Source: Citrobacter farmeri
Lineage (GTDB): Bacteria; Pseudomonadota; Gammaproteobacteria; Enterobacterales; Enterobacteriaceae
Length of the DNA: 64,000 bases
Assembly (NCBI RefSeq): GCF_019048065.1
Contig: NZ_CP077291.1
Span: 124,001 to 188,000 of the forward strand
Reading direction: 5' to 3'
Position 1 is the stretch's first letter; each line of letters starts with the position of its first letter. The notes under the pieces were generated by a model, which was not told the origin of the DNA, ran no database searches, and saw nothing but the letters and a program-made list of their open reading frames with translations. Made by a program: the position numbers and the translations under genes. This document shows, piece by piece, positions 29,296 to 39,300 of this stretch.

Positions 29296-29544
29296 GTGAG
29301 CACAATGGCTGGAATGGACATGGGCAGAATATTACTCGACTTATCCGATGAGGCGATCAAACGCCTTGACGATCTCAAGCAGCTGCGGAATCTGCCGCGT
29401 GCGGAGTTGCTGCGCGAAGCAGTGGAACAGTACCTTGAAAGGCAAGGCCAGGCTGAAACCATGATTTCCAATGCGCTAGGGATCTGGCAAGGCTGTGAGG
29501 AAGATGGCGTTGAGTATCAGAAGACGTTGCGCGAGGAATGGTAA
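29296..29544 (+). CDS. yiiF: YiiF-like ribbon-helix-helix antitoxin
   Basis: An 82-residue protein with an N-terminal ribbon-helix-helix DNA-binding fold ([19 protein letters not shown], then [15 protein letters not shown]). Its acidic C-terminal tail ([16 protein letters not shown]) would wrap the toxin. It resembles E. coli YiiF. The GTG at 29296 is used because GGAGG lies 5 bp upstream; an internal ATG at 29305 is possible. The next gene starts on its stop codon (TAATG), as expected of a toxin-antitoxin operon. It would neutralise the PIN toxin and repress its own promoter. Confidence 0.87.
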
Positions 29545-29930
29545 TGCACAAGAAACCCGTGCTGTTCGATACCAATATCCTGATTGATTTATTTAGCGGT
29601 CACCAGGAAGCGCAGCGAGCACTGGAAGCGTTTCCGCCGCAGAATGCTATCAGCCTGATCACCTGGATGGAAGTGATGGTGGGAGCAAAAAAATATCATC
29701 AGGAATATCGTACGCGCGTGGCGTTGAGTGCGTTCAATATCATCGGTGTTTCACCGGAAATTGCTGAGCGAAGCGTGAATCTCAGGCAGGAATATAAGAT
29801 GAAACTTCCGGACGCGATCATTCTGGCTACTGCGCAGATTCATCGGTTTGCGCTTGTGACGCGCAATACCAGAGATTTTGCGGGGATCCCTGGCGTCATC
29901 ACACCTTATCAGTTGCAGACCGGACGGTAA
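29544..29930 (+). CDS. PIN-domain (VapC-type) ribonuclease toxin
   Basis: A 128-residue PIN-domain protein. The acidic catalytic residues are visible in FDTNILIDLF (Asp near 9), WMEVMVG (Glu near 43), PDAIILATA (Asp near 92) and TRNTRDFAG (Asp near 112), so all four metal-binding positions appear intact. VapC toxins cleave tRNA or rRNA and stop growth until bound by the antitoxin. AGGA at 29534-29537 favours the ATG at 29544 over that at 29538. It overlaps the antitoxin stop codon. In E. coli K-12 this toxin partner is missing or reduced, as far as I recall. Confidence 0.88.
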   Translation: MHKKPVLFDTNILIDLFSGHQEAQRALEAFPPQNAISLITWMEVMVGAKKYHQEYRTRVALSAFNIIGVSPEIAERSVNLRQEYKMKLPDAIILATAQIHRFALVTRNTRDFAGIPGVITPYQLQTGR

Positions 29931-30890: not shown

Positions 30891-31034
30891 TCAGTCACTT
30901 CCTGGTTAGGCAGATTTAGCTATGTGTAATCCGCTCTGTGAATTGGCGGGCATTTCGCGCCCGCTCTGGTGAATGTCATTAATGATAACCGCAATCGGCC
31001 TGCAGGTTATACCTGTGACATCGCAATGTGTGCG

Positions 31035-31721
31035 TTACGATACCTGATATCGATACCCCAGACCATGCACCGTTCGGATTAGCTGCGGGTGATTGGCATC
31101 CCGTTCGATGACTTTGCGTAGCCGGGAAATGTGCTGATCCAGCGTGCGGCTATTGGGCAAATAGTCGTATCCCCATGCCGCATCGAACAACATATCGCGC
31201 GTAACCACCTGATTTTGATGACGCTCCAGGCAGCTTAAAATCCGTACTTCCCGCAGTGTCAGTTCCAGCTTTTGTTCGCCACGCCAGGCGCACAGCTCAT
31301 TCGGGAACACCGTAAGGTCACCAAATACAAAGCTGAGGTTAGGCTGCGTGGCGTGACGGTTCAAACAGCGACGGGCGATGGTTTTTATCCGCGCCCGCAG
31401 TTCATGAATACCAAACGGTTTGCTGATGTAGTCATCCGCTCCCAGTTCCAGCCCTACAACCCGGTCAATTTCCTCGTCTTTGGCAGAGAGAAACACGATG
31501 GGAATGTGTTCGTTTTGACGGCGAATTTCCCGGCAGACCGTGTAGCCATCCATTTCGGGCATCATGATGTCTAACAGTACGAAGTCCGGTTTGTCCCGAT
31601 GATAACTCTCCAGCGCCGCGCGTCCGTCTGGTGCGGCAATGAGCGAGTAACCTTCGCGAGACAGCACATCCACCAGACCCTGGCGGATGTGAGCATCATC
31701 TTCTGCAATCAGTATCTTCAT
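31035..31721 (-). CDS. OmpR/PhoB-family response regulator of the VWA operon
   Basis: A 228-residue regulator with an N-terminal receiver domain (acidic residues EDD at 7-9, phospho-acceptor Asp51 in LLDIMMPEMDG, Lys in ISKPF) and a C-terminal winged helix (about 130-226, LTLREVRIL and TVHGLGYRYQV). It lies 4 bp downstream of the histidine kinase gene and surely forms a pair with it. It should bind tandem 11-bp half-sites, and such a repeat is present upstream of the operon. I do not recognise it as any named E. coli regulator. It resembles CreB/PhoB-type proteins only at family level. Confidence 0.9.
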   Translation of the reverse strand: MKILIAEDDAHIRQGLVDVLSREGYSLIAAPDGRAALESYHRDKPDFVLLDIMMPEMDGYTVCREIRRQNEHIPIVFLSAKDEEIDRVVGLELGADDYISKPFGIHELRARIKTIARRCLNRHATQPNLSFVFGDLTVFPNELCAWRGEQKLELTLREVRILSCLERHQNQVVTRDMLFDAAWGYDYLPNSRTLDQHISRLRKVIERDANHPQLIRTVHGLGYRYQVS

Positions 31722-31725
31722 GTTC

Positions 31726-33222
31726 TCATCCCTGAGGTAGCGTAAGGGTAAAACGGACGCCGGGCTCTTGTGCCGTTACCTGAATCTTACCGTGCAGGCG
31801 TTGTGCCAGTTGGCAAGCGATAGTTAATCCAATACCGGTGCCCGAAACGCCTTCGGTAATGGCGGATTTGACCCGATAAAACGGGCGGAATATCAGGGGC
31901 ATTTCGTTCTCCGCAATACCAGGGCCATAGTCGCGAACAGCGATCTCCACGTTTCCTGCGACGCTTTCAACAGTCAGATCGACGCGCTGACCCTGCGAAG
32001 CATATTTCTCGGCATTGCTCAAAAAATTGCTGACAATTTGCGTGATCACGTCGCGATCGCTATGCAATATCAGTTTCTCGGGGCAGGCCAGTTGAATCGT
32101 CATCCCTTTTGCCTGCAACGCGGGCGTAAAGATCTGCGTGATTTCTGCCATCAGGCTTGGGATATCGACCGCCTGAAGATGCAGTTTCGGCGCGCGCGTA
32201 AAGGTCAGGATATTCTGGATAAGTCGCGATAACCGCTGACCTTCCTGGGTGATCACATCCACATAGCGTCGCTCGTGCGTTTGTTCATCATCCAGTCCTT
32301 CACGCAGCAGTTCGGCATAGAGCGTGATGTTGGTCAGCGGTGTTTTCAGTTCGTGTGACACCTGGCTGACAAAATCGACCTGTTGGCGTGCCTGACGCGC
32401 CGCACGGGTATATTCCCGCCATAACGAGAAACCCAGCAGTGCGACGGCGAGCAGAAGCAGGACGATTAACGCGCCACCCCACAGCCAGATGTGCCAGAGC
32501 GGCGCGTTAACACCGTAAGCGCTGACCTGCCATGTTGTGAGCGGATACTCCAGCGTGCGGGAGTCCAGTAAGGTGAGCCGACGCAAATCCGCCTGCGCGT
32601 TCTGATAAAGCTGACGGCCGTTTTCCGTCACCCGGACAATCTGTTGCGGGTCTTCCAGATTCACCTGAATGCCGTTCGCCATATCCATCATCAATTGTAC
32701 CCAGGAGAGGCGAAAGCCGACGATCGCCTCGTCTTTCTGCCGCCAGTAAATCAACAGAGGTTCCTGCGTCTCAAAACTAATAAACCAGCCGGCCTGCGGC
32801 GTGTCCTGTTCGCTGTGCGTCATGTGGCTGGCAAGTTGGCTGGGATCGTTGACCAGCGGGCTGAGCAGGCGTACCCACTCTTTATCCTCGTTGCTTAACG
32901 GCTGATGCTCATCGGGATAGAGGAGATGATTCTTCCGCAGGATAAAAACGTTGGCAATGTCGCTGTCGTTCTCTTTCAGTGTGCTGAGGGTGGCGACATC
33001 AGCAGGGTCGATAAAATCGCCGATCGCATGCAGGCGCGAAGCTTTTTGCTGCAGGATATTTTCGATACCCGTGGCAACGCTGGCCGTTTGCGATTTCGCC
33101 AGGACCTCAGCCTGGTACTGGCGCAACAAGATTTCATGTTCCAGGGTGCGAATGCCCAGGTAAGCAAGCAGAATAAAAAACATCAGCGTGATGACGAGAT
33201 AAATCGGCTTGCGTCTGAGCAT
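31726..33222 (-). CDS. Membrane sensor histidine kinase of the VWA operon
   Basis: The 498-residue kinase has one membrane segment at about 7-24, a periplasmic sensor of about 220 residues, and a second segment at about 245-268. Next is the H-box VSQVSHELKTPLTN with phospho-His290. The ATPase domain follows with N-box SNFLSNAEKY (Asn403), DYGPG (431-435) and GTGIG (461-465). The sensor domain begins with a long helical stretch and looks like a double-PAS/Cache or four-helix type; I cannot name it. AGGAG precedes the ATG. It is 17 bp downstream of the VWA gene, which suggests the VWA protein modulates signal input. Confidence 0.92.
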   Translation of the reverse strand: MLRRKPIYLVITLMFFILLAYLGIRTLEHEILLRQYQAEVLAKSQTASVATGIENILQQKASRLHAIGDFIDPADVATLSTLKENDSDIANVFILRKNHLLYPDEHQPLSNEDKEWVRLLSPLVNDPSQLASHMTHSEQDTPQAGWFISFETQEPLLIYWRQKDEAIVGFRLSWVQLMMDMANGIQVNLEDPQQIVRVTENGRQLYQNAQADLRRLTLLDSRTLEYPLTTWQVSAYGVNAPLWHIWLWGGALIVLLLLAVALLGFSLWREYTRAARQARQQVDFVSQVSHELKTPLTNITLYAELLREGLDDEQTHERRYVDVITQEGQRLSRLIQNILTFTRAPKLHLQAVDIPSLMAEITQIFTPALQAKGMTIQLACPEKLILHSDRDVITQIVSNFLSNAEKYASQGQRVDLTVESVAGNVEIAVRDYGPGIAENEMPLIFRPFYRVKSAITEGVSGTGIGLTIACQLAQRLHGKIQVTAQEPGVRFTLTLPQG

Positions 33223-33239
33223 CCAGCACTCCTTGTGGA

Positions 33240-34577
33240 TCAGTTCGATTTCGAACTCTGATTTTTGGTTTTATAGCTCTGTTCTTTCAGCGACTTGCGC
33301 GAAGCTTCTTTGCTTTCACTTTCCATTTTATCCAGCAATTTAAGGTTTTCCTCTGCGCTTTCCTGCGCTTTCATTCTGGCAGCCGGTGCGCTAAGGGGTA
33401 ACGCACTGAGCGTACTGGAGTTTTCACGCAGGATCGCTTTTGCTTCGTCCATTTTGCCTTCATCCATGAGCTGTACCGCCTGCTCATTCTGGATGGCGGA
33501 TTTCTGAATGGCGGAATCGACGACCACATCTTCCACCTGCGCTTTCTGAACATCGCTGGCAGAGGCGGTATAGCTGACGGCCATCTTGTCATCCCAGCGC
33601 TCTTTCTGCCCGGTGGCAAGGTTGTTATAGCTGACGTTGACCTCGGCGAGCGGTTTGCGCTGTGCGGCCTGGCCTTTCGCCGGCAGCACCTCCAGCATGA
33701 CATATTTCTCCTGGTTGGCGTAAAGCTGGTTCAGTTTTACGGTAACCGTGTTGTCGCGGATTTCACCCTCACGCCCCAGCAGGCGCAACGGCTTAACGTT
33801 GTCGGCGACGTTAATTTGCACCACCACATCCTGAGCGACGACGGACATCACATCGCCAAACTCATGGGCAAATGCCTTCTCCAGCGCATCGGTGTTTTGC
33901 ACGAACACGTGGTTGCCATCGCTGTACTGGGCGATCGCCGCCATCAGATCTTCATTGTAGCCTTCACCGATGCCCATCGTCGTGATAGCAATCCCTTTGC
34001 GGGCGGCAATTTTACCCAGTTCCGCCAGTTCGCTGGTGGAGGAGGGACCAACGTTCGCCTGACCATCAGACAGCAGGATGATGCGGTTAACATGGTCTTT
34101 ATCGAGGAATTTACTGGTTTCTTTGATGCCGCGACTGACCCCGGCAAACAGCGCGGTACCGCCGCGTGCGGTCAGTCGTTCACGGATATGGCTGATAAGT
34201 TTCGCTTTATTGCTGACTTTGGCCGCAGGCACAATGACATCCACGACGTCGTCATAAATCACTACCGAGAGTGTGTCCTCGGCGCTTAAGGTATTCACTG
34301 CCATCACGGCGGCTTCTGTTGCCTGTTCAATGCGGTCGCCACCCATGGAACCGGAGCGGTCAATCACCAGCGCGAGGTTGATTGGACTGCGTTTGGTGGC
34401 GTTGAGGGGGAAGCCTGTCAGTGAGATTTTCAGGTAGTTTTTGTCCTGGCTATTTTCCAGCACCAACGGAGAAGCCAGTTCAGATTTAATGGCTACTTTT
34501 GGCGCAGGCTGCTGTGCCGACGTCGTTGTCGCAAGCAGTCCTAATGTCAGAACTGCGAAGAGGTGTTTAAGATTCAC
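33240..34577 (-). CDS. Secreted von Willebrand factor A-domain protein
   Basis: The 445-residue precursor has a Sec signal (MNLKHLFAVLTLGLLATTTSA, cleavage before QQPAP) and a VWA domain at about 65-250. Its MIDAS metal site is complete: Asp73, Ser75 and Ser77 in DRSGSM, Thr141 in GGTALF and Asp171 in LLSDGQ. It is followed by a beta-rich region as in YfbK and inter-alpha-inhibitor-like proteins, then a charged helical C-terminus ending in Lys/Ser-rich residues. No lipobox cysteine or sortase-type anchor is seen, so a periplasmic location is likely. The GTG at 34577 follows AGGAG and places the signal peptide at the N-terminus; the upstream ATG frame would bury it. It is the first gene of the operon. 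Confidence 0.88.
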   Translation of the reverse strand: MNLKHLFAVLTLGLLATTTSAQQPAPKVAIKSELASPLVLENSQDKNYLKISLTGFPLNATKRSPINLALVIDRSGSMGGDRIEQATEAAVMAVNTLSAEDTLSVVIYDDVVDVIVPAAKVSNKAKLISHIRERLTARGGTALFAGVSRGIKETSKFLDKDHVNRIILLSDGQANVGPSSTSELAELGKIAARKGIAITTMGIGEGYNEDLMAAIAQYSDGNHVFVQNTDALEKAFAHEFGDVMSVVAQDVVVQINVADNVKPLRLLGREGEIRDNTVTVKLNQLYANQEKYVMLEVLPAKGQAAQRKPLAEVNVSYNNLATGQKERWDDKMAVSYTASASDVQKAQVEDVVVDSAIQKSAIQNEQAVQLMDEGKMDEAKAILRENSSTLSALPLSAPAARMKAQESAEENLKLLDKMESESKEASRKSLKEQSYKTKNQSSKSN

Positions 34578-34651
34578 GGTACGTCTCCTTGTCTTAAGAA
34601 TCGACTCCATTCTTGTGCGACCCCAACGCCGATTGGTCTGTTATCTGTATA

Positions 34652-34673
34652 AAGTTGTCAAAAAGTTGTCAAA
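34652..34673. promoter_or_regulatory. Tandem 11-bp repeat upstream of the VWA operon
   Basis: AAGTTGTCAAA occurs twice head to tail (34652-34662 and 34663-34673). Adjacent direct repeats with an 11-bp period are the binding pattern of OmpR/PhoB-family regulators; the sequence even resembles a Pho box (TTGTCA repeated). On the minus strand each copy reads TTGACA, a perfect -35 hexamer facing the VWA gene. It is a plausible operator for the response regulator encoded in this operon, or for PhoB. Confidence 0.6.
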
Positions 34674-34689
34674 ACCGCACGATACCCAT

Positions 34690-34722
34690 AAAAAAAGCGC
34701 CGGATACAAAGGCATCCGGCGC
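34690..34722 (-). terminator. Terminator of the fdoGHI operon
   Basis: Read on the minus strand, arms of nine perfect base pairs (GCGCCGGAT, plus-strand 34697-34705, with its complement at 34714-34722) enclose an 8-base loop and run into seven U residues (34690-34696). It lies 35 bp after fdoI and separates it from the VWA operon. Confidence 0.92.
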
Positions 34723-34756
34723 CACGTTTTTGACTCGCGAACAGAGCCGCCTCTGC

Positions 34757-36306: not shown

Positions 36307-39300
36307 TTACACCTTTTCCACGTTCACCAGGAAGGACTTAAATTCCGGCGTTTGTGAGTTTGCATCGCCCACCGACGGTGTCAGGGTGTTCGCAATGAAC
36401 CCTTTCTTCGCCACGCCTTCATAGCCCCAGTGAATGGGAATACCGATAGTATCGATATCCTTACCATCTGCCTTCAGCGTGCGAATACGCTTGGTCACCA
36501 CTGCTTTGGCCTTGATGTAGCCGCGGTTAGAGGAGACTTTAACGGTATCGCCATGCGCGATGCCGAGCTTATTCGCCAGCGTTTCCCCGATCTCCACAAA
36601 CTGTTCTGGCTGTGCGATAGCGTTAAGCAGCGCATGCTTGGTCCAGTAGTGGAAGTGCTCGGTCAGACGATACGTGGTCCCGACGTACGGGAACTTATCG
36701 GCTTTACCCAGCGCTTCGGCGTCGCCCTTAAAGATACGGGCGGCAGGGTTAGAGATAACGTTCGGATGCAGCGGGTTGGTCCCCAGCGGCGTTTCAAACG
36801 GTTCGTAGTGTTCCGGGAACGGCCCTTCTGCCATCTTGTCGAGAGCAAACAGGCGACCCATCCCTTCAGGCTGCATGATGAACGGTCCGACATCGCTGCC
36901 TGGTGCGGCGGCGCTGTAGTCCGGAATATCCATCCCGCTCCACTTCGCGCCATCCCATTTCAGGATTTGGCGCTTCGGATCCCACGGATTGCCCTGCGGG
37001 TCAGCGGAAGCACGGTTGTACAGGATGCGGCGGTTCAGCGGCCATGCCCATGCCCAGCCCAGCGTATTGCCGAGACCGGATGGATCGGCGTTATCGCGCC
37101 GCGCCATCTGGTTGCCTTCCGGCGTCCAGCTACCGGCGAAAATCCAGCAGCCGCTGGAGGTGGTGCCGTCGTCACGCAGTTGGGCAAACGAGCTGAGCTG
37201 TTGGCCTTTTTTCACGATCACTGCGCCCGTTGCCGGGTCGATGAGATCGGCCAGCGCTTTGCCGTTGCTCTCCATCGCCACTTCTTCCGATGCCGGTTCA
37301 TGTGGCGTGGCGTAGTTCCAGGTCATGCTCAGCACCTGTTCAGGGTTGGCACCGCTCTGTTCAGCATACATTTTACGCAGGCGCAGGAAGATCCCGGCCA
37401 GGATTTCACCGTCGGTAACCGCGATCCCCGGGGCGTCAGCGCCTTTCCAGTGCCACTGCAGCCAGCGACCGGAGTTAACGATTGAACCGTTTTCTTCGGC
37501 GAAGCAGGTGGATGGCAGACGGAACACCTCGGTCTGGATTTTCGATGGATCCACATCGTTCGACTCACCGTGGTTTTGCCAGAAGGTGGAGGTCTCCGTG
37601 TTAAGCGGATCGATAGTCACCAGGAACTTCAGTTTAGACAGTGAGGCAATCGTCTTGTTTTTATTCGGGAATGACGCGACCGGGTTGAAGCCCTGGCAGA
37701 TGTAGCCATTGACCTTACCCTCTTTCATCATCTCGAAGTATTGCAATACGTCGTACCCTTTGTCCCACTTCGGCAGCCAGTCAAAGCCCCAGTTATTTTC
37801 CGCCGTTGCTTTGTCACCATAGAAGGCCTTCATCAACGAGACGAAGAATTTCGGGTAGTTGCCCCAGTAGTTGACCTGATCTTTCAGCAGCGGTTTCGGC
37901 GTGTTGGCGGTCAGATACGTTTGCAGATCCGGCTGTTTTTCATTTGGCAGCGTCAGGTAGCCCGGCAGACTTTGCGACAGCAGGCCCAGGTCCGTCAGCC
38001 CCTGAATGTTGGAGTGGCCACGCAGGGCGTTAACGCCGCCGCCTGCCATCCCCATGTTGCCGAGCAGCAACTGAATCATCGCCATGGTGCGGATGTTTTG
38101 CGAACCAATGGAGTGCTGCGTCCAGCCCAATGCATACAGGAACGAGGCGGTTTTATCTTTCGCGCTGGTCTCTGCAATGTACTCGCACACTTTCAGGAAG
38201 TCGGCTTTTGGCGTACCGCAGATGTTTTCCACCATGTCCGGCGTGTAGCGGGAGACGTGCTGTTTCAGCAGGTTCCAGACACAGCGCGGGTGTTGCAGCG
38301 TGGTATCGCGTTTCGCAAAGCCGTTTTCGTCCAGCTCATAGTTCCAACTGGTTTTGTCGTACTTGCGTGCATCCGCGTCATAGCCAGTAAACAGACCATC
38401 ATCGAAGCCAAAATCTTCACGCACGATCAGGCTGGCGTTGGTATAGGCTTCGGTGTATTCGCGGTTATATTTTTCGTTAGTTAGCAGGTACAGGATGACG
38501 CCTGACAGGAAGGCAATGTCAGTACCAGAACGAATAGGTGTGTAGAAATCGGCTACCGACGCCGTACGCGTAAAGCGAGGATCGATCACAATCAGCTTCG
38601 CGCCGTTGTGAATTTTCGCTTCCATCGCCCAGCGGAACCCGACCGGGTGTGCTTCAGCGGCATTGCCGCCCATCACCACGATGAGGTTGGCGTTCTTGAT
38701 GTCGACCCAGTGGTTGGTCATCGCACCGCGACCAAATGTTGGAGCAAGACTTGCTACCGTTGGTCCGTGTCAGACACGCGCCTGGTTGTCGACCGCGAGC
38801 ATACCGAGCGCGCGGGTAAATTTTTGCGTTAAAAAGCCGGTTTCATTACTGGACGCGGAAGCACACAGCATCCCGGTAGAAAGCCAGCGGTTAACGGTAA
38901 CGCCTTCGGCGTTTTGCGCAATGTAGTTGGCATCGCGGTCTTCTTTCATCAGCTTAGCGATGCGGTCAAATGCCTCATCCCAGCTGATCTGCTGCCATTT
39001 ATCCGAGCCTGGCGCGCGGTACTCAGGGAATTTCAGGCGGCTTTCGGAGTGGATAAAGTCCACCAGACCGGCCCCTTTCGGGCAGAGCGCACCACGATTG
39101 ACCGGATGGTCCGGGTCACCTTCGATATGGAAGATAGACGCTTTGGCGTTTTTTGCACCGTCACCGAGGCTGTACATCAATAGCCCACAACCAACGGAAC
39201 AGTAAGTGCAGGTATTACGGGTTTCGCGGGTGCGCAGCAGTTTATATTGCCGTGTTTCCGCGAGCGCTACGCCGGGCGCAAAGCCCAGTGCCGCCGCCGT

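What the first reader, a model, noticed from the sequence alone, without database searches (positions are those of the whole stretch)
31035..34577. Secreted VWA protein, sensor kinase and response regulator operon splitting the formate dehydrogenase-O region
Seen directly: three same-strand genes (17-bp and 4-bp gaps) between fdoI and fdhE, which are neighbours in E. coli. The VWA protein has a signal peptide and an intact MIDAS site; the kinase has a large periplasmic sensor. Known: two-component systems are usually tuned by periplasmic accessory proteins, but a MIDAS-type VWA partner is not standard for named E. coli pairs. Distantly similar kinase/regulator/VWA sets exist in some marine proteobacterial sortase loci, though no sortase is seen here. 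Inference: the VWA protein binds a divalent metal or an envelope ligand and modulates the kinase. This is the best candidate for an undescribed system in the window.
Basis: partly seen in the sequence, partly recalled or inferred. Interest (0 to 1): 0.8.

Follow-up and report, generated by a model that had tools for sequence, protein, structure and literature searches.

The report
Self-regulated VWA two-component signalling module
Three neighbouring genes encode an exported protein with a metal-site motif, a membrane sensor and a gene switch; they travel together in very different bacteria and seem to control mainly their own production, which would make them an unstudied envelope sensing unit.

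Summary
Between fdoI and fdhE lies a same-strand operon: a secreted VWA protein with intact MIDAS residues, a histidine kinase whose periplasmic sensor reaches no Pfam cut-off, and an OmpR/PhoB-type regulator. Of 80 named relatives examined, 68 carry all three genes in that order, 7 are cut off by contig ends and 5 lack kinase and regulator. In 149 family genomes VWA and sensor occur in the same 13; in 369 class genomes no sensor match lacked the VWA gene. New here: an 11-bp direct-repeat operator at fixed distance from a -10 element upstream of the VWA gene, in 63 of 80 scored loci, 0 of 713 control windows and none of the five VWA-only loci. In 13 triad enterobacterial genomes, long-form sites with at most one mismatch occur in 9, each only at this promoter. 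So the regulator most likely drives chiefly its own operon, with the VWA protein as main product and probable sensor partner. Two congeners without the operon keep a scar of the regulator gene's end, showing loss. Sortase and formate dehydrogenase links are not supported. The signal is unknown; all evidence is computational.

The parts
34690..34723 (-). intrinsic terminator after fdoI, separating fdoGHI from the triad
   Evidence: 12-pair stem plus T run (the scan found 7 terminator-like sites against 3.7 in shuffles); a stem-loop with T-rich tail lies at the same place in all 8 relatives inspected at this site (by eye)
34635..34672 (-). operator: TTGACAACTTT direct repeats at 11-bp spacing, with further half-site-like steps at TATACA and CAGACC
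   Evidence: only one such long-form site in the own genome at up to 3 mismatches of the 28-letter version
34609..34614 (-). proposed -10 element AAGAAT of the triad promoter
   Evidence: fixed offset from the operator across relatives; the generic promoter scan did not list it
34585..34590 (-). AAGGAG Shine-Dalgarno site of the VWA gene
   Evidence: sequence
33240..34577 (-). secreted VWA protein, 445 aa, Sec-type signal peptide (by eye), MIDAS D73/S75/S77/T141/D171 (445-aa numbering)
31726..33222 (-). sensor histidine kinase, 498 aa; HisKA 281-344 with H290, HATPase_c 389-497; no HAMP match
32494..33144 (-). periplasmic sensor region of the kinase (about residues 27-243, limits by eye)
   Evidence: two hydrophobic segments read by eye; no Pfam family above cut-off
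31035..31721 (-). OmpR/PhoB-type response regulator, 228 aa, phospho-acceptor D51
30891..31034 (-). spacer to fdhE; retained together with the regulator's last codons as a scar in two triad-less congeners

Best explanation
The locus is a self-contained three-gene signalling unit. The VWA protein is exported to the periplasm (inferred from its signal peptide) and holds a divalent metal at its MIDAS (residues shown, metal inferred). The kinase senses the state of the envelope or a ligand through its periplasmic domain, most likely together with the VWA protein (inferred). The phosphorylated regulator binds the 11-bp repeats upstream of the VWA gene and activates that promoter (operator and promoter geometry shown by comparison; which protein binds, and the sign, inferred). 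Because no second strong operator stands out in the genomes searched, the main output of the pathway is more VWA protein plus kinase and regulator: a feedback loop whose effector is also its probable sensor partner. In the Citrobacter clade the unit sits by history in the fdo operon and has no lasting functional tie to formate dehydrogenase.
For: Same gene order in 68 of 80 named loci, 7 more cut off by contig ends. VWA and sensor in the same 13 of 149 family genomes; all 9 class genomes of 369 with a sensor match also hold an adjacent full-length VWA gene. Operator core with at most 1 mismatch in 63 of 80 scored loci (window included), 0 of 713 control windows, 2 of 80 reversed upstream regions; 0 of the 5 VWA-only loci have it. 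A -10 element at fixed offset (72 in the 26 closer sites, 73 in the 38 distant ones) while the distance to the gene varies. The long-form operator with at most 1 mismatch was found in 9 of 13 triad enterobacterial genomes, each time only at the VWA promoter; the 31 other matches, all with 2-3 mismatches, compare with 48 for the backwards control. MIDAS invariant in 78 of 78, kinase H in 66 of 66 (one of these, L080, is a non-triad kinase), regulator D51 in 50 of 50. Distances of the VWA protein follow the sensor beyond kinase and regulator: partial r 0.39 (VWA domain) and 0.47 (C-terminal part), against 0.13 and 0.08 with the kinase domain and 0.07 and 0.26 with the regulator (50 loci).
Against: No structure could be predicted, and no binding or expression data exist. 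The core pattern was drawn from the same upstream regions that it was then scored on, and the loci are not independent. More degenerate operators elsewhere would be missed. In 4 of the 13 enterobacterial triad genomes the long form was not found at the own promoter at this stringency. One site with a single mismatch lies away from the VWA gene, in G149 (L174), between genes and in the opposite orientation to a secreted-protein ORF; in the nine class genomes 4 of 8 matches lie elsewhere, against 5 in the control. 12 triad loci lack the operator core; 5 of them show a 10-bp-spaced variant by eye. Five VWA proteins without kinase keep the MIDAS, so the metal site has a role that does not need this kinase. 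The co-variation test can reflect shared evolutionary rate. Some distant loci are metagenome bins whose phylum labels may be wrong.
Confidence: 0.58

Rival explanations
1. The operator belongs to CpxR, and the triad is one more member of the Cpx envelope-stress regulon.
For: The core read on the other strand is GTAAA-N6-GTAAA in many distant loci and GTCAA-N6-GTAAA in Yersinia/Serratia-type loci, which fits the CpxR motifs GTAAA-(N)4-8-GTAAA and GTCAA-(N)4-8-GTAAA given in PMC12802237 (passages seen).
Against: In the window's clade both half-sites are GTCAA, away from the CpxR consensus. The composite site is nearly unique per genome, whereas the same passages name around 100 CpxR promoters in E. 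coli and 37 units in P. aeruginosa. It occurs in betaproteobacterial, verrucomicrobial and spirochaete-labelled loci (whether these have CpxR was not tested) and is missing in the loci without kinase and regulator.
Confidence: 0.12
2. The kinase-regulator pair controls a broader envelope regulon through degenerate sites, and the VWA gene is only its strongest target and feedback modulator, as CpxP is for Cpx.
For: Many OmpR-family regulators bind degenerate sites (general knowledge); the pattern search allows at most 3 mismatches. A one-mismatch site away from the triad exists in G149 (L174).
Against: Matches away from the promoter are below or about the backwards-control rate (3 against 13; 31 against 48; 4 against 5). 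The second exact core match in the own genome (L138) lies inside a permease-like ORF.
Confidence: 0.27
3. The unit is a diverged branch of the proteobacterial dedicated sortase system, with the VWA protein as sortase target.
For: The VWA protein's best NCBIfam match is TIGR03788 (marine sortase target), and TIGR03787 is among the regulator's matches.
Against: Scores are far below the curated cut-offs (78.7 against 551.65; 144.5 against 335.7). No sortase domain match in the own genome (the same search rings in 3 of 14 control genomes). No LPXTG-type tail in the sequence (by eye).
Confidence: 0.03
4. The unit serves formate dehydrogenase-O maturation or expression, for example by driving fdhE through read-through.
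For: It lies between fdoI and fdhE in one enterobacterial clade; between the regulator and fdhE the scan listed only a weak terminator-like site (6 pairs, 31005-30989) without a continuous T run.
Against: Of the 80 named loci only 8 have fdo genes at the triad; no neighbour recurs outside close relatives. Two congeners that lost the triad keep fdhE with the spacer.
Confidence: 0.05

Closest known systems
CpxA-CpxR with periplasmic CpxP (recalled; CpxR motif from PMC12802237 passages)
   Same: Membrane kinase plus OmpR-type regulator plus a secreted partner as target and probable modulator; similar direct-repeat half-site.
   Different: VWA/MIDAS protein instead of CpxP; partner gene first in the same operon; operator nearly unique in the genomes searched; regulator scores 145.8 against the CpxR cut-off 341.
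Proteobacterial dedicated sortase system (TIGR03787/TIGR03788)
   Same: Regulator and VWA protein are distantly similar to its models.
   Different: No sortase in the own genome, no sorting tail, scores far below cut-offs.
QseE-QseF with lipoprotein QseG (PMC6075780, PMC12691602: search-listing abstracts only)
   Same: A periplasmic accessory protein sets kinase activity.
   Different: QseG is an outer-membrane lipoprotein, not known to me as a VWA protein; QseF acts at sigma-54 promoters, unlike an OmpR-type regulator.
PhoB-type regulators (operator layout recalled)
   Same: 11-bp direct repeats just upstream of the promoter; same domain layout (PhoB model 180.9 bits against cut-off 296.2).
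   Different: Different operator letters, different sensor, VWA partner.

Membership tests
OmpR/PhoB-class two-component system | HisKA/HATPase_c kinase with phospho-acceptor His | tested here: met
   (H290; 66 of 66 aligned kinases, one of them the non-triad kinase of L080)
OmpR/PhoB-class two-component system | receiver domain with phospho-Asp plus winged-helix Trans_reg_C | tested here: met
   (D51, 50 of 50)
MIDAS-type VWA proteins | D-x-S-x-S, T and D metal-site residues | tested here: met
   78 of 78
MIDAS-type VWA proteins | binds a divalent metal | not testable with these tools
   no structure or assay
Proteobacterial dedicated sortase system | TIGR03788 target and TIGR03787 regulator above curated cut-offs | tested here: not met
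   78.7 against 551.65 and 144.5 against 335.7
Proteobacterial dedicated sortase system | sortase in the genome | tested here: not met
   PF04203 0 of 1 (own genome), control rings in 3 of 14
Cpx system | regulator above the CpxR model cut-off | tested here: not met
   145.8 against 341
Cpx system | CpxP-type accessory protein | tested here: not met
   the neighbouring partner is a VWA protein
Cache/PAS sensor kinases | sensor region matches dCache or PAS above cut-off | tested here: inconclusive
   3 of 46 sensors hit dCache_1 weakly, best E 0.0011; the window's own sensor did not
Accessory-protein-modulated two-component systems | physical contact of the periplasmic protein with the sensor | tested here: inconclusive
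   co-inheritance and partial distance correlation only

The most novel reading that the evidence does not exclude
A widespread, undescribed class of one-promoter two-component systems in which the regulator's only dedicated target is its own operon, and a MIDAS VWA protein is both the sole effector and the sensor's partner: a closed periplasmic homeostat with a conserved repeat operator shared by bacteria labelled as several phyla.
Probability: 0.38. Interest if true: 0.75.

Novelty: new variant of a known kind. Interest (0 to 1): 0.6.

Why it matters
A VWA-kinase-regulator unit that is inherited as a block across distant bacteria, and whose operator is nearly unique in the genomes searched, would be a compact, testable model of how a secreted metal-site protein feeds back on a sensor. 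It gives a function class and an experimental entry point (promoter, operator, cognate genes) to VWA proteins that the records seen name only as VWA-domain or 'Ca-activated chloride channel' proteins.

Tried and rejected
Formate dehydrogenase link: rejected as a general function, since only 8 of the 80 named loci, all in one enterobacterial clade, have the unit there. Sortase system: rejected by cut-offs and by absence of sortase in the own genome. Conserved extra partner gene: in the clustering of neighbours none recurs outside close relatives, except a cluster over 7 loci whose longest member reads as an ABC-type ATPase (by eye; not followed up). Single-lineage additions are a DUF4139 protein between VWA and kinase in Wohlfahrtiimonas, ABC-2 transporter genes after the triad in L028/L031, MoxR/DUF58/VWA genes after it in L092 and a GGDEF protein in L078 (Pfam was run on 8 of the proteins listed). 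Plasmid carriage: 4 records at E up to 1e-30, all distant VWA proteins of at most 35% identity. The profile search of the sensor against solved structures gave only weak matches of one helical segment to coiled-coil chains. Regulon search: the extra core match in the own genome lies inside a coding sequence. Literature: the listings (20 of 199 papers shown; 20 of 205; 20 of 20; 2 of 2; 12 of 12; 10 of 118, none on the subject) show no paper that describes this triad by title and abstract; one search was for the CpxR motif. These searches cover open-licence PubMed Central only.

Structure prediction of the VWA protein and of the sensor was planned and could not be run, so no fold search was made.

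Full report
WHAT IS THERE. The three genes lie on the - strand between fdoI and fdhE exactly as described. Pfam assigns VWA, HisKA/HATPase_c and Response_reg/Trans_reg_C. No Pfam domain covers the kinase's periplasmic region above cut-off; of 46 aligned sensors 3 hit dCache_1 weakly. The VWA protein of the window is 97-98% identical to records named Citrobacter farmeri, which is my basis for placing the window there. In the E. coli record inspected fdoI and fdhE overlap by 4 bp, and megablast of the triad finds no match in the E. coli collection.

HOW WIDE IT IS. With profiles for the three proteins, 68 of these 80 have VWA, kinase and regulator in that order on one strand (recounted). Another 7 (L032, L061, L066, L067, L074, L077, L094) are cut by contig ends. 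Five (L069, L076, L079, L080, L084) have the VWA gene without kinase and regulator behind it; L076 holds only 1.4 kb after the gene, and L080 has an unrelated-looking kinase on the opposite strand. In the two Wohlfahrtiimonas loci another gene stands between VWA and kinase; the L047 copy matches DUF4139. The record titles span Enterobacterales, other gamma- and betaproteobacteria, delta groups, and bins labelled Verrucomicrobia, Lentisphaeraceae, Spirochaetia, Myxococcota and Nitrospina. The bin labels were not checked, and L028 (labelled Cystobacterineae, 63% identical to the window) looks mislabelled.

DO THE PARTS TRAVEL TOGETHER. In 149 genomes of the family, full-length VWA relatives occur in 13 (15 at the cut-off, two of them remote VWA hits) and the kinase sensor in the same 13, at adjacent coordinates. 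In 369 genomes of the class, ten have a full-length VWA relative (E below 1e-100) and nine a sensor match; all nine are among the ten and adjacent, and G381 has the VWA gene without a sensor match at the cut-off. The sensor model was built from triad kinases, so very divergent sensors would be missed. Distances of the VWA protein across 50 triads follow those of the sensor even after kinase and regulator are accounted for: partial r 0.39 for the VWA domain and 0.47 for the C-terminal part, against 0.13 and 0.08 with the kinase domain and 0.07 and 0.26 with the regulator. This suggests contact but can also reflect shared evolutionary rate.

A CONSERVED OPERATOR. Upstream of the VWA gene lies TTGACAACTTTTTGACAACTTTATACAGATAACAGACC (34672-34635, - strand). 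In distant relatives it reads about TTTACAAA-TTTTTACA. The core TKACANNNTTTTKACA was drawn up after looking at these upstream regions. It occurs with at most one mismatch in 63 of 80 scored upstream regions (window included; L024 was too short and dropped), in 0 of 713 control windows from the same loci, and in 2 of 80 reversed upstream regions. The other 17 are the 5 VWA-only loci (L076 has a two-mismatch site) and 12 triad loci. Five of these 12 (L033, L034, L035, L037, L044) show a similar repeat with 10-bp spacing by eye. The logo shows further half-site-like positions at about 11-bp steps, and a -10 element at a fixed offset: 72 in the 26 closer sites (W and loci up to L046, mostly enterobacterial; 17 score above 3) and 73 in the 38 distant sites (23 above 3). 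Of the 65 offsets scanned no other has a positive mean score. The distance from operator to the profile-defined start of the VWA protein varies from 91 to 216 bases in the distant loci, so operator and -10 hold together as a promoter. The last half-site falls near where a -35 would be, as in promoters activated by OmpR/PhoB-class regulators (general knowledge), so activation is the likelier sign; this is inferred. The generic promoter scan did not list this promoter.

HOW MANY TARGETS. In the 13 triad genomes of the family the exact 16-letter core gives 12 matches, 9 of them at the VWA promoter and 3 elsewhere; the backwards control gives 13. The 27-letter form gives 40 matches with up to 3 mismatches. 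Those with at most one mismatch are 9, one in each of nine genomes, all at the VWA promoter; G003, G046, G048 and G143 have none at that stringency. The other 31, all with 2-3 mismatches, compare with 48 in the control. In nine class genomes 8 matches with up to 2 mismatches of a similar pattern were seen: 4 (L170, L171, L173, L175) beside the VWA gene by coordinates and 4 elsewhere, against 5 in the control. One of those elsewhere, in G149 (L174), has a single mismatch; it lies between two genes, in the opposite orientation to the ORF that follows, whose reading suggests a secreted protein. So no second strong operator recurs, but a lone extra target or a regulon of degenerate sites is not excluded.

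WHY IT IS NOT AN fdo SYSTEM. A terminator follows fdoI (34723-34690). Among the 80 named loci only 8 have fdo genes at the triad, all in one enterobacterial clade (Citrobacter, Klebsiella spallanzanii, Trabulsiella, Phytobacter, Intestinirhabdus, Entomohabitans). Within the genus 6 of 8 genomes have the VWA gene, the own one included. The two without it (L186, L187) have fdoI, a terminator-like hairpin (by eye) and then about 190-195 bases that align to the end of the regulator gene and the spacer before fdhE (scores 215 and 201; best of 100 shuffles 27 and 34). Both alignments begin at the same point of the regulator gene, so one shared deletion is likely. The unit was therefore lost there, and the retained spacer may hold the promoter of fdhE (inference).

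WHAT IT MOST LIKELY DOES. The MIDAS residues are the same in 78 of 78 VWA proteins, the kinase histidine in 66 of 66 (one of them the non-triad kinase of L080) and the regulator aspartate in 50 of 50. I take it as an active two-component system whose periplasmic VWA protein is its main product and its probable sensor partner. What is sensed, which metal is bound and whether VWA activates or restrains the kinase are open. The nearest working analogy is Cpx with CpxP (recalled). The CpxR motif also resembles the operator (PMC12802237, passages), which makes CpxR the rival most worth testing.

NOVELTY. None of the NCBIfam models shown is passed by the three proteins (the best 25 of 103 for the regulator and of 83 for the kinase were shown, and both of 2 for the VWA protein). 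The literature searches (open-licence PubMed Central only, listings partly capped) showed nothing on this triad. I rate it a new variant of a known kind: a two-component system with a dedicated VWA partner and a near-private operator.

Noticed in passing
L186 and L187 (unnamed congeners): Degraded last part of the regulator gene remains between fdoI and fdhE where the triad was lost; both scars start at the same point.
   Followed up: yes
window 29296-29930: A ribbon-helix-helix plus PIN-domain pair (VapBC-like toxin-antitoxin) lies beside fdhE; an annotated VapC/CopG-type pair is at the same place in an E. coli record (L178).
   Followed up: partly
window 36307-38721 and upstream: The formate dehydrogenase alpha subunit appears as two ORFs (195 and 804 aa), as expected for an in-frame selenocysteine TGA; the codon itself was not inspected.
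   Followed up: no
L069, L076, L079, L080, L084: VWA relatives with intact MIDAS but no kinase and regulator behind them and no clear operator (L076 has a two-mismatch site); possible stand-alone form of the protein.
   Followed up: partly
L047:6763-8211, L048:9391-10839: An extra gene, DUF4139 in the L047 copy and with a signal peptide by eye, stands between the VWA and kinase genes in Wohlfahrtiimonas.
   Followed up: partly
L174:1501-1528: In one class genome (G149) an operator-like site with one mismatch lies between two genes away from the triad, opposite in orientation to a following ORF that reads like a secreted protein.
   Followed up: partly
L019: The kinase gene of one Trabulsiella odontotermitis record is split into two frames (frameshift or sequencing error).
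   Followed up: no
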